A stretch of 40,367 nucleotides of DNA, taken from positions 1 to 40,367 of the forward strand of contig CALBCY010000134.1 in assembly GCA_937927195.1 (NCBI GenBank), read 5' to 3'. The notes under the pieces are model-generated. The model was not told where the DNA came from and did no database searches. It saw nothing but the letters and a program-made list of their open reading frames with translations. Position numbers and translations under genes: made by a program. The stretch's first letter is position 1. Every line of letters starts with the position of its first letter. This DNA comes from an uncultured Chitinophagales bacterium. Its GTDB lineage: Bacteria > Bacteroidota > Bacteroidia > Chitinophagales > UBA2359. Below, piece after piece: positions 15 to 3,917 of this stretch.

Positions 15-120
15 TAACGGCGTGGTCTAATGGATAAGGCACAGGGTTTCGATCGCACCGGCGACCCGGCCCTGCAGATGCGATTTCGACCGGGCTTGCG
101 TCCAAGTCTTGTCGCCGTTA
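15..120 (+). pseudogene. tRNA-Arg(TCG)-like gene, interrupted or degenerate
   Basis: The 5' half reads as a tRNA: acceptor strand AACGGCG (16-22), a D-arm GTCT/AGGC (25-28 with 37-40), then an anticodon stem CAGGG (42-46) and a 7-nt loop TTTCGAT (47-53) giving anticodon TCG (Arg, codon CGA). The matching CCCTG does not follow at once. It appears at 70-74, after 16 extra bases. The 3' acceptor strand CGCCGTT (113-119) pairs perfectly with the 5' strand, but no proper T-arm can be formed in between. I therefore see a tRNA-shaped outer frame with an enlarged anticodon loop and a lost T-arm. A small intron is possible, but the missing T-arm argues for a broken gene. Confidence 0.5.
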
Positions 121-303
121 CAATAATCTAAGCGGTTTCGATCGCACCGGCGACCCGGCCCTGCAGATGCGATTTCGACCGGGCTTGCGTCCGAGTCTTG
201 TCGCCGTTACAATAATCTAAGCGGTTTCGATCTCACCGGCGACCCGGCCCTGCAGATGCGATTTCGACCGGGCTTGCGACCGAGTCTTGTCGCCGTTGCA
301 ATT
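45..303 (+). repeat. 89-bp tandem repeat, about 2.9 copies
   Basis: Copies start near 45, 134 and 223, with an exact 89-bp period and only a few differences (for example at 104/193 and in the third copy at 232-233). Each copy starts at the anticodon loop of the broken tRNA-like gene and runs through its 3' acceptor strand, so the unit is a duplicated 3' half plus about 18 bp of spacer. Each copy contains CGGCGAC paired with GTCGCCG, an inner CCCGG/CCGGG, and a short CTTG/CRAG hairpin. It is much more GC-rich than the genes around it. Confidence 0.9.
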
Positions 304-307
304 TTTT

Positions 308-379
308 AGACCCATAGCACAAAGGCTAGTGCACCGGATTTTGATTCCGGGGATCCAGGTTCGAATCCTGGTGGGTCTA
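308..379 (+). tRNA. tRNA-Gln(TTG)
   Basis: A complete cloverleaf. Acceptor AGACCCA (308-314) pairs with TGGGTCT (372-378) and the discriminator is A379. The D-stem is GCAC/GTGC. The anticodon stem CCGGA/TCCGG (334-338, 346-350) encloses TTTTGAT with anticodon TTG at 341-343. The T-arm is CCAGG-TTCGAAT-CCTGG (355-371). CCA is not encoded. A T-run follows directly. It decodes CAA. Confidence 0.96.
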
Positions 380-511
380 TTTTTTTGTTATTGTGTGAAT
401 TGAATTTGCGTATGAGCTATAAATAAAATTTGTATCTAAGGAACTAATACCAATTCACTATTGTATATAAATTGAACAACGACTTGTAGATTATTTCAAA
501 AGAATAGAACA

Positions 512-592
512 ATGGGCAATACTAATTTAAACATGAATTCATTCCTTGGTTTTAGATTCAATTCTAATCATAAGGAGGCTGTGTTTATTTGA
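512..592 (+). CDS. possible 26-residue small ORF
   Basis: An ATG at 512 opens 26 codons ending in TGA at 590-592, 20 bp before a strong terminator hairpin. The peptide starts MGNTNLNMNS and has no recognisable motif. The terminator shows that some transcript ends here, but the ORF is short and may be chance. The rest of 380-703 is AT-rich and shows nothing else. Confidence 0.18.
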   Translation: MGNTNLNMNSFLGFRFNSNHKEAVFI

Positions 593-612
593 ATATAACT
601 ACACATTTTTTT

Positions 613-645
613 AAAAGGCCTCTTTGAATCTCAAAGAGGCCTTTT
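613..645 (+). terminator. Rho-independent terminator
   Basis: A perfect 15-bp stem (613-627 with 631-645) encloses a 3-nt loop, and its right arm runs into a T-tract (642-648). It lies downstream of tRNA-Gln and the small ORF and upstream of the kinase-like gene at 704. It probably ends a transcript from the 380-600 region. Confidence 0.75.
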
Positions 646-703
646 TTTATTCTAATTCTGTACGGTTTTAGGTTTTAAAGGTTGAGTTGCTAAAAAAAAT
701 GAT

Positions 704-1273
704 ATGAAACTAGTAATTGTTTGTGGACCACCCGCTGCTGGTAAAATGACAGTTGGGCGAGAATTGGGGAAATTAACAGGCTATAAATTGTTTCACAATC
801 ATATGTCTTTAGAATTGGTCAATCAATTTTTTGATTGGAGTACTCCTCCATTCAAGCGATTGGACAAGCTTATTCGTTTCGGAATTTTTAAAGAGGTTGC
901 CAAGAGTGATTTGTCAGGTTTGATTTTTACAATTGTCTGGGCATTTGACCAAAAAGAAGACAATGAATACATCAATGAAATTGAAGCAATTTTTGAGGCA
1001 GAAGGTGCAGAAATTTGTTTTGTGGAATTGAAAGCTGATTTGACGGTAAGACTGGAAAGAAACAAACATCCAGATCGTCTGAAAGAGAAAGAATCAAAGC
1101 GAAATGTCGAGCGTTCGGAAAAAGGTTTATTGTTGCATGAAAAGCAATATCGCATGAATTCATTAGAGGATGAATTTTTGGAAAAGAAGATTTATAAAAT
1201 TGACAATACTGATTTGTCTGCAAAAGAAGTGGCTATGAAAATTAAAGAGCATTTCTTATTGGAAATGAATTGA
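704..1273 (+). CDS. AAA/shikimate-kinase-like P-loop NTPase
   Basis: This 189-residue soluble protein starts with a beta strand and Walker A motif GPPAAGKMT at residues 8-16, as in small nucleoside or antibiotic kinases and shikimate-kinase-like P-loop proteins. A conserved-looking HNHMSLELV follows near residues 31-39, and a charged region with several Arg/Lys (about residues 120-150) could be the lid. The ATG at 704 is the only sensible start because the P-loop follows within eight residues. It stands alone between tRNA genes, with a hairpin downstream at 1326. The family is recognised, but the phosphorylated substrate cannot be told from sequence. A chloramphenicol-phosphotransferase-like or nucleotide kinase role is possible but unproven. 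Confidence 0.8.
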   Translation: MKLVIVCGPPAAGKMTVGRELGKLTGYKLFHNHMSLELVNQFFDWSTPPFKRLDKLIRFGIFKEVAKSDLSGLIFTIVWAFDQKEDNEYINEIEAIFEAEGAEICFVELKADLTVRLERNKHPDRLKEKESKRNVERSEKGLLLHEKQYRMNSLEDEFLEKKIYKIDNTDLSAKEVAMKIKEHFLLEMN

Positions 1274-1325
1274 AAACAATTAAAAGATTGAGATAATAAT
1301 ACATCGTTATTTCATTGAACTCTTT

Positions 1326-1354
1326 AGGGGGGATGATTTGTTAACATTCCCCCT
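1326..1354 (+). terminator. possible terminator after the P-loop gene
   Basis: AGGGGGGATG (1326-1335) pairs with CATTCCCCCT (1345-1354), ten pairs with one G-T wobble and a 9-nt loop. There is no clean T-tract after it, so termination is only likely. It lies 52 bp after the stop of the kinase-like gene and 20 bp before tRNA-Phe. Confidence 0.45.
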
Positions 1355-1374
1355 TATCAATAAGAATTCGATTT

Positions 1375-1447
1375 GGAAGTTTAGCTTAACAGGTAAAAGC
1401 GGTCGGTTGAAGCCCGACAGTTCGAGGTTCGAGTCCTTGGGTTTCCA
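1375..1447 (+). tRNA. tRNA-Phe(GAA), with a wobble-rich acceptor
   Basis: Acceptor GGAAGTT (1375-1381) pairs with GGTTTCC (1440-1446) using three G-T wobbles, and the discriminator is A1447. The D-stem is GCTT/AAGC. The anticodon stem GTCGG/CCGAC (1402-1406, 1414-1418) encloses TTGAAGC with anticodon GAA at 1409-1411. The T-arm is CGAGG-TTCGAGT-CCTTG (1423-1439). G at position 37 is unusual for tRNA-Phe, which normally has a modified A, so the identity rests on the anticodon alone. Confidence 0.8.
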
Positions 1448-1563
1448 CAAGATACCTTCTTCGGTCACGGTGTTTGGTGTTAGTTTTTTTGTTTGAATTG
1501 TTGTGAAGCACTTTTTTGTTGAGTTCTGTTATTCATTATTCGGTGCTTAGAATTTTTACAAAT

Positions 1564-1635
1564 TGATCTGTAGCTCAGTGGCAGAGCAGCCGCCTGTTAA
1601 GCGGCAGCGCATTGGTTCGAATCCAATCAGATCAG
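1564..1635 (+). tRNA. tRNA-Asn(GTT)
   Basis: Acceptor TGATCTG (1564-1570) pairs perfectly with CAGATCA (1628-1634) and the discriminator is G1635. The D-stem is GCTC/GAGC. The anticodon stem GCCGC/GCGGC encloses CTGTTAA, anticodon GTT. The T-arm is ATTGG-TTCGAAT-CCAAT. A short T-run follows. All cloverleaf positions are regular. Confidence 0.96.
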
Positions 1636-1661
1636 CTTTTTTATAAAAGTTTTTTGAGTCT

Positions 1662-2099: not shown

Positions 2100-3917
2100 T
2101 TATCTGTAACCCTCGGCTTGCAACTGAAACAATTCAGCGTATTTTCCATTGAGTTCTACCAACTCTTCATGGCTTCCAAGTTCAAGGATGTTGCCGTTCT
2201 CTAAGAACAAAATTCTATCCGCCATTCTGACTGTTGAAAATCTATGTGAAATCAATACAGCCATTTTCCCCTCGATCAACTTTGTGAATCTTTGAAAAAC
2301 TTCATGCTCCGCACGGGCATCCAATGCAGAAGTTGGTTCATCTAATATCAGCAATTGTGCTTCTTTCATATAGGCTCTTGCCAAAGCGATCTTTTGCCAT
2401 TGCCCTCCAGATAAATCGACAGCTCCTTCAAATCTTTTTCCCAGCATTTGATTGAATCCGTCCGGTAATGTTTCAACGACATCGGCTGCCAAACTTTTGT
2501 TAGCCGCATCTGCAATTCGGTCTTCTTCTTTTAAAGACTCAATTTTACCAATCGCAATATTTTCATTGGCTTTCATTTCAAAACGTACATAATCCTGAAA
2601 AATAATTCCAATGCTTTCTCGCAACTCTTTCAGCTTATAAGATTTGATGTCTTTTCCATCCAATAAAATTCTTCCTTCTGTCGGTTCATACAATCTTGCA
2701 ATCAATTTTACCAAAGTAGTTTTACCAGCTCCATTCTCGCCAACCAATGCCAACTTTTCTCCTTGTCTCAATTTGAAACTCAAATTCCTTAAAACCCAGT
2801 TGTCAGAATTGGGATATTGAAATCCTACATTTTCAAACTCTATTCCTGTCTGAATGGGTTGGGGGAGTGGCAAGCTGCTTAAATCCCCAATGATTTCAGC
2901 ATCCATTTCAAAGAAATCAAAAAGATCTTGTAAGTACATTGTTCGATCTGCAATGAAGGAAAAACGATTCATAATTCCTTGCAGCATGTTTCGCATTCTA
3001 TTAAAAGAACCCGCCAGAAAAGTCAAGGTTCCAACTGTTATAAAAGCAGATATGGTTTGAAGAATAATAAAGACATAAGCGCCATAATATGCTACCGTTC
3101 CAACTCCAGACAACAGACTGCCCCAAATAGATCTTTTTACTGATAGTGATTTATTAGCCGCATAATATTCATCTGATATTTTTTCAAAACGGTTGGCCAG
3201 AAAGTCTGAAAGTCCAAATGACTTAACTTCTTTCGCTGTTAAATTACTAGCACCGATGAAACGAAGGTAATCAAGCTCTCGTCTTTGTGGGGTCCAGTTT
3301 CTTGTGAGTGAATAAATTCTTTGGTTAAATATACTTTCATTTAAAAAGCCAGGAATGACTGCAAAGAAAAATATCAAAATCAACCAAGGACTAAAATAGA
3401 CCAAACCAATAGATAGCAATACAATACTTATGATATCTTGAACTTGAACAAGTACCATCGTTAAAAGCTGGGTTCGACCATTGGTCTGTCGCCTGGCTCT
3501 TTCCAGCTTGTCATAAAATTCAGAATCTTCAAATTGATACAAGTCTAATTTTGCAGCATGCTTAATCAATGCAACAGAAGTTTTGTTGGCAAATAAATCT
3601 CCCAACAAGGAATCAAACAAATTGGTTACTCGGTTGATTAACTCGGAGCTGAAGGCCAAACCGAACTCAATTGCCAAATAAATCCATAGGGCAGTTTTAT
3701 CAGCATCAGGAGCGTCAATCAAGAAAATCACTTCATCTATAATCAATTTTCCAACGTATAATATTGCCAAAGGGATACCAGAGCGAATGAGTCGTAGGAA
3801 TACATTGACAACGGTATAAGTCTTACTGGTATTCCATACCAACATAAAAAACTTGGGTAGATTTCGGTACGATAAAAATTGTTCTTTAAAACTTGGTTTG
3901 TCTGTTTTTTGACTCAT
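2100..3917 (-). CDS. ABC exporter, fused membrane and ATPase domains
   Basis: A half-size ABC exporter: six likely transmembrane helices in the first 330 residues, then a full nucleotide-binding domain. In a count from the upstream ATG at 3986 (628 residues), Walker A GENGAGKTT is at 416-424, signature LSGGQ at 525-529, Walker B LLILDE at 545-550 and the switch His at 581. I prefer the ATG at 3917, which gives 605 residues starting MSQKTDKPS, because the 23 residues before it are a hydrophobic stretch unlike this family's N-terminus. The upstream start at 3986 remains possible. It should work as a homodimer in the inner membrane, exporting a lipid, peptide or drug; the substrate is not readable from sequence. 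A broken lipoprotein gene follows 15 bp downstream. Confidence 0.9.
   Translation of the reverse strand: MSQKTDKPSFKEQFLSYRNLPKFFMLVWNTSKTYTVVNVFLRLIRSGIPLAILYVGKLIIDEVIFLIDAPDADKTALWIYLAIEFGLAFSSELINRVTNLFDSLLGDLFANKTSVALIKHAAKLDLYQFEDSEFYDKLERARRQTNGRTQLLTMVLVQVQDIISIVLLSIGLVYFSPWLILIFFFAVIPGFLNESIFNQRIYSLTRNWTPQRRELDYLRFIGASNLTAKEVKSFGLSDFLANRFEKISDEYYAANKSLSVKRSIWGSLLSGVGTVAYYGAYVFIILQTISAFITVGTLTFLAGSFNRMRNMLQGIMNRFSFIADRTMYLQDLFDFFEMDAEIIGDLSSLPLPQPIQTGIEFENVGFQYPNSDNWVLRNLSFKLRQGEKLALVGENGAGKTTLVKLIARLYEPTEGRILLDGKDIKSYKLKELRESIGIIFQDYVRFEMKANENIAIGKIESLKEEDRIADAANKSLAADVVETLPDGFNQMLGKRFEGAVDLSGGQWQKIALARAYMKEAQLLILDEPTSALDARAEHEVFQRFTKLIEGKMAVLISHRFSTVRMADRILFLENGNILELGSHEELVELNGKYAELFQLQAEGYR

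What the first reader, a model, noticed from the sequence alone, without database searches (positions are those of the whole stretch)
15..303. Broken tRNA-Arg(TCG) whose 3' half is tandemly repeated three times
The sequence shows a tRNA 5' half, a 16-base insertion in the anticodon loop, a perfectly matching 3' acceptor strand, and then two more copies of everything from the anticodon loop onward with an 89-bp period. Each copy can fold CGGCGAC with GTCGCCG, or alternatively GGT-ttcg-ATCGC with GCGAT-ttcg-ACC, and the two folds exclude each other. It could be a decayed tRNA, a scar of repeated integration at a tRNA 3' end, or a structured RNA that grew from a tRNA. Integration at tRNA 3' ends is established; the rest is inference.
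Basis: partly seen in the sequence, partly recalled or inferred. Interest (0 to 1): 0.7.

Follow-up and report, generated by a model that had tools for sequence, protein, structure and literature searches.

The report
Split tRNA-Arg with repeated 3' half
At the end of a contig from an uncultured Bacteroidota-type bacterium lies a tRNA gene for arginine interrupted twice by 16-base inserts, with its second half copied two more times; it resembles the poorly understood intron-bearing tRNA genes of phages, but whether the cell still makes a working tRNA from it is not known.

Summary
Removing both gives a sequence that ARAGORN calls tRNA-Arg(tcg). The part from the anticodon stem onward is then repeated twice in 89-bp units, ending at an intact tRNA-Gln. 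No relative was found in the own genome, 60 related genomes, 394 other genomes of the phylum, or the phage, plasmid and viral collections. The closest phenomenon is phage tRNAs with 'enigmatic introns' (Lak megaphages). I found further such genes in IMG/VR contigs, and in a prophage-like region of the same genus and a same-family genome. The window element differs: shorter inserts, no shared motif, one insert in the T loop. No splicing endonuclease gene or bulge-helix-bulge motif was found. Best reading: an extra, insert-bearing tRNA gene whose 3' half was tandemly duplicated. Whether the inserts are spliced, or the gene is dead, cannot be told from sequence.

The parts
16..120 (+). tRNA-Arg(UCG)-like gene with two 16-nt inserts
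   Evidence: cmscan RF00005 28.5 bits; doubly excised sequence called tRNA-Arg(tcg) by ARAGORN; anatomy
54..69 (+). insert 1, anticodon loop (position about 37/38-39; exact edge ambiguous by a few bases)
   Evidence: removal restores CAGGG-TTTCGAT-CCCTG; score 16 of 17, reached by 0.3% of shuffles
91..106 (+). insert 2, T loop (position about 59/60; edge ambiguous by a base or two)
   Evidence: removal gives GCGAT-TTCGACT-CTTGT
45..133 (+). repeat unit copy 1: 3' part of the tRNA from the anticodon stem on, plus 13-nt spacer
   Evidence: the repeat finder
134..222 (+). repeat unit copy 2, 99% identical to copy 1, no 5' half
223..311 (+). repeat unit copy 3, 90% identical; its spacer runs into tRNA-Gln
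   Evidence: variable sites
307..380 (+). intact tRNA-Gln(TTG), a second copy in this genome
   Evidence: ARAGORN and Rfam; the other copy is at C156
613..645 (+). terminator-like hairpin followed by T run, possible end of a transcript
   Evidence: consensus match only, 1 found against 2.0 expected in shuffles
1375..1636 (+). tRNA-Phe (1375-1448) and tRNA-Asn (1564-1636), also second copies

Best explanation
An extra tRNA-Arg(UCG) gene, at the head of a small cluster of redundant tRNA genes, carries two short intron-like inserts, one in the anticodon loop (about 37/38) and one in the T loop (about 59/60). Its 3' part, with both inserts and a 13-nt spacer, was later copied twice by local tandem duplication. 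If it works, the inserts must be removed from the precursor by an unidentified activity to give a 73-nt tRNA reading CGN arginine codons, and copies 2 and 3 would be spacer fragments trimmed away. If they are not removed, the RNA cannot decode. Shown: the anatomy, the restored tRNA on excision, the tandem copies. Inferred: that the inserts arose as intron-like elements rather than random damage; the order of events; any transcription or splicing.
For: Excising both 16-nt inserts gives an ARAGORN tRNA-Arg(tcg). Acceptor, D and anticodon stems are intact, which random damage would not spare. Both inserts are the same length and sit at positions where archaeal introns occur, 37/38 and 59/60 (PMC4090602). 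Of the four sites that differ between copies in the tRNA body, three lie in inserts and one at the discriminator, none in tRNA stems. Insert-bearing tRNAs occur in a prophage-like region of the same genus (L104), in a same-family genome (L062) and in many viral contigs.
Against: No PF01974 splicing endonuclease in 20 family genomes although all four archaeal controls ring; no bulge-helix-bulge; inserts lack the hairpin-ACAGCAA motif of one phage group. No T-loop-enlarged tRNA was seen elsewhere. T stem is weak, with T instead of the usual G at position 53. No homolog shows conservation. The clustering of differences in inserts is not significant (p 0.3).
Confidence: 0.45

Rival explanations
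1. A dead tRNA gene. A redundant tRNA-Arg gene took two insertions and a T-stem mutation and, free of selection, its 3' part was tandemly duplicated. Nothing is made from it, or only an unstable RNA.
For: No splicing machinery or motif; weak T stem; repeat without 5' half; no homolog in relatives; the neighbouring tRNAs are second copies; short T-arm inserts in eukaryotic tRNA genes are mostly taken as pseudogenes (PMC4090602).
Against: Two inserts of equal length at intron positions with all other stems intact is an unlikely way to decay; no other tRNA for CGU/CGC/CGA codons was found in this genome or its two congeners, though the genomes are incomplete.
Confidence: 0.35
2. Scar of mobile-element integration at the anticodon loop: each copy of the 3' half is a displaced fragment left by an integrated element that was later lost.
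For: Islands leave a tRNA plus a displaced 3' fragment in the same orientation, and crossover at the anticodon loop is common (PMC4383910); the duplicated part starts in the anticodon stem and reaches the 3' end.
Against: Exact 89-bp period with the same 13-nt spacer and 99% identity of copies 1 and 2 indicate tandem duplication; no integrase noticed in the ORF lists of the window. Does not explain the two inserts.
Confidence: 0.08
3. A structured RNA made from the repeats, comparable to the tandem repeats that follow tRNA-Tyr in E. coli tyrT.
For: Units are 95-100% conserved in the 76-base body while the spacer of copy 3 differs at 5 of 13 sites (p 0.003), if those spacers are homologous.
Against: No folding signal above shuffles; no Rfam family other than tRNA with a convincing match; no relatives.
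Confidence: 0.07
4. Assembly artefact at a contig end.
For: The contig starts 15 bases before the tRNA, in a fragmented metagenome assembly of 372 contigs.
Against: Copies differ from one another at nine unit positions, and the 5' and 3' halves have matching stems.
Confidence: 0.03

Closest known systems
'Enigmatic' introns in phage tRNA genes (Lak megaphages, PMC6784885)
   Same: Bacterial-type tRNA gene with a short insert whose removal restores a normal tRNA; splicing mechanism not given
   Different: Here two 16-nt inserts, one in the T loop, on a bacterial contig, with tandem 3' halves; no shared motif with the phage inserts I could align
Archaeal and nucleomorph tRNA introns (PMC4090602)
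   Same: Same positions (37/38, 59/60), several short inserts per tRNA
   Different: No bulge-helix-bulge, no splicing endonuclease family in this taxon
E. coli tyrT with its tandem repeats and rtT RNA (from memory)
   Same: tRNA followed by tandem repeats that contain the tRNA 3' end
   Different: There the tRNA is intact and the repeat holds only a short tRNA piece; no rtT match here
Displaced tRNA 3' fragments of genomic islands (PMC4383910)
   Same: tRNA followed by same-orientation copies of its 3' part from the anticodon on
   Different: No island between tRNA and fragment; regular 89-bp tandem spacing

Membership tests
tRNA gene (RF00005) | Model score above the gathering threshold | tested here: not met
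   28.5 against 29 bits for 16-120
tRNA gene (RF00005) | Paired acceptor, D, anticodon and T stems | tested here: met
   7/7, 4/4, 5/5, 4/5 pairs, once loops of 23 nt are allowed
tRNA gene (RF00005) | 7-nt anticodon and T loops in the RNA that is used | not testable with these tools
   needs RNA data; met only after both 16-nt inserts are removed
Archaeal/eukaryotic protein-spliced tRNA intron | Bulge-helix-bulge at the splice sites | tested here: not met
   best central helix 3 of 4 pairs without the flanking helices, both inserts
Archaeal/eukaryotic protein-spliced tRNA intron | Splicing endonuclease PF01974 in the genome | tested here: not met
   absent in 20 family genomes, present in all four archaeal controls; genomes incomplete
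Phage tRNA intron-like inserts | Excision of one stretch restores a canonical anticodon arm | tested here: met
   score 16 of 17 for the anticodon insert
Phage tRNA intron-like inserts | Hairpin followed by ACAGCAA (one phage group) | tested here: not met
   absent from both 16-nt inserts; motif scan gave no window hit
Group I/II self-splicing intron | Recognisable ribozyme core | tested here: not met
   16 nt only; no intron family among Rfam matches
Genomic-island tRNA fragment | Integrase and island between tRNA and displaced fragment | tested here: not met
   89-bp spacing, no room for an island; no integrase noticed in the ORF lists; upstream of the contig start unknown
E. coli tyrT / rtT RNA | Match to the rtT RNA family | tested here: not met
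   no such match up to E 10 in 1-320

The most novel reading that the evidence does not exclude
A bacterial chromosome encodes a working tRNA-Arg(UCG) with two 16-nt introns, one in the T loop, removed by a splicing activity that is neither group I/II nor the known tRNA splicing endonuclease; the tandem 3' halves would offer three alternative 3' exons for one 5' exon.
Probability: 0.15. Interest if true: 0.9.

Novelty: new variant of a known kind. Interest (0 to 1): 0.5.

Why it matters
Short intron-like inserts in bacterial and phage tRNA genes have no splicing mechanism that I could find described. A case with two equal inserts, one outside the anticodon arm, on a bacterial contig, widens the phenomenon and gives a simple test (is a 73-nt product made?). 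If it is only a dead gene, it is an unusual record of how a redundant tRNA gene breaks and duplicates.

Tried and rejected
Homology of the repeat: none in own genome, 60 relatives, phages and plasmids (short weak matches taken as chance), viral contigs; the one genome-contig hit lies in sequence that looks protein-coding and is taken as chance. Covariance model of the element: only its own three copies in 395 genomes of the phylum, and no significant match in the 20 of the family. Group I/II intron: inserts far too short and no Rfam match. Bulge-helix-bulge introns. Essentiality argument (no other tRNA for CGU/CGC/CGA in three congeners): suggestive but inconclusive, since tRNA-Cys, tRNA-Ile(GAT) and tRNA-Ala(TGC) were also not found in this incomplete genome. 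The ACG-pattern hit in the own genome (L203) is not a tRNA. Alternative folds as a switch: not above shuffles. Weak twister, miRNA and atpB matches are noise. The many viral hits with a 46-nt spacing look like tRNA-Ile(TAT) with a long extra arm, not introns. Literature searches for tandem tRNA 3' repeats found nothing.

Full report
What is there. The window is the whole of contig C134 of a fragmented genome (372 contigs, 93.5% complete). Its first bases are TCATACACCTTTTTT, then a tRNA-like gene. ARAGORN reports only tRNA-Gln 307-380, tRNA-Phe 1375-1448 and tRNA-Asn 1564-1636, but cmscan aligns 16-120 to the tRNA family end to end with 28.5 bits, half a bit below the threshold, with long extra stretches in two places: the anticodon loop and the T loop. 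Written out: AACGGCG TG GTCT AATGGATA AGGC A CAGGG TTTCGAT [CGCACCGGCGACCCGG] CCCTG CAGAT GCGAT TTCGAC [CGGGCTTGCGTCCAAG] T CTTGT CGCCGTT A. Both bracketed inserts are 16 nt. Acceptor, D and anticodon stems are fully paired; the T stem has a T at position 53. The doubly excised 73-mer is called tRNA-Arg(tcg) by ARAGORN, the intact gene is not.

Is it chance? Given the 5' half, dinucleotide shuffles of the following 76 bases contain both partner strands in the right order in 0.05% of cases. A cloverleaf scan of all DNA then held found 78 normal tRNAs, 24 with enlarged anticodon loops, and one element with both loops enlarged: this one (counted eight times because overlapping loci hold it). The tRNA identity of both halves is therefore solid.

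The repeats. The 89-bp unit starts in the anticodon stem (base 45) and runs 13 bases past the discriminator; it occurs three times, the last ending inside tRNA-Gln. Copies 1 and 2 differ at one base. Across the three copies four sites of the 76-base body vary (three in inserts, one at the discriminator), and copy 3 differs at five of the 13 spacer bases. Exact period and high identity indicate tandem duplication. Copies 2 and 3 have no 5' half, so they cannot form a cloverleaf alone, although each offers the same acceptor 3' strand to the single 5' strand.

Context. The tRNA cluster is made of second copies: the genome has another tRNA-Gln(TTG), tRNA-Phe and tRNA-Asn. The neighbouring ABC transporter gene has relatives in other family genomes without any tRNA beside it, as far as the fetched flanks reach, so the cluster looks acquired or relocated (inference). 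The rest of the window reads as ordinary chromosomal genes from the ORF lists; only five proteins were searched. The element itself has no match in any relative or collection searched. The genome and its two congeners show tRNA-Arg(CCG), with TCT in two of them, but not ACG or canonical TCG, which most other family members have; incompleteness prevents a conclusion.

What it resembles. Insert-bearing tRNA-like genes turned up in a prophage-like region of a congener (L104, with ERF, HNH and S24 repressor genes) and in a same-family genome (L062). A pattern scan of IMG/VR gave 87 stretches; of 55 parsed candidates with paired acceptor stems, 27 give a canonical anticodon arm when one stretch is removed, against 0.8 expected from shuffles. 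Lak megaphages were reported to have such 'enigmatic introns' (PMC6784885). Archaeal introns occur at the same two positions as here, 37/38 and 59/60 (PMC4090602). But the splicing endonuclease family was not found in this taxon, no bulge-helix-bulge is present, and the hairpin-ACAGCAA motif of one phage group is absent. The element looks like an intron-bearing tRNA gene but meets no defined intron family.

Judgement. Origin as an insert-bearing tRNA gene with a tandemly duplicated 3' half is the best fit (0.45); a plainly dead gene is close behind (0.35). Function cannot be decided without RNA.

Noticed in passing
L142, L131, L117, L184, L122, L159, L192, L166, L197, L118 (IMG/VR contigs; positions): Phage tRNA genes with roughly 27-55 nt inserts in the anticodon arm, often inside the stem near 29/30; removing one stretch restores a canonical arm in 27 of 55 (0.8 expected). 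Fourteen inserts aligned as a group mostly share a hairpin followed by ACAGCAA; in 13 of them all 7 hairpin pairs show two-sided compensatory changes. Possibly a widespread family of tiny phage tRNA introns, more interesting than the window element.
   Followed up: partly
L104 3148-3261, about 3382-3445, 3540-3642 (G001:C211): Prophage-like region of the same genus with two tRNA-like genes bearing roughly 30-40 nt anticodon-loop inserts and a short one apparently lacking a D arm.
   Followed up: partly
L062 1494-1620 (G012): tRNA gene in a same-family genome with a 53-nt insert in the anticodon loop.
   Followed up: partly
L047 253-728 (G000:C23), L048 141-226 (C302), L053 1282-1431 (C266), window 307-1636: The genome carries second sets of several tRNAs (Tyr, Leu, Met, Ser-GCT, Gln, Phe, Asn) unlike its main copies, and one with a 4-base anticodon call (cttc).
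   Followed up: no
L204, L205, L208 and about 40 more viral contigs: Apparent tRNA-Ile(TAT) genes with a long hairpin between anticodon arm and T arm.
   Followed up: no
L105 2836-3323 (G001:C239): Array of six similar tRNAs with unusual anticodons (Ile-AAT, Cys-ACA).
   Followed up: no
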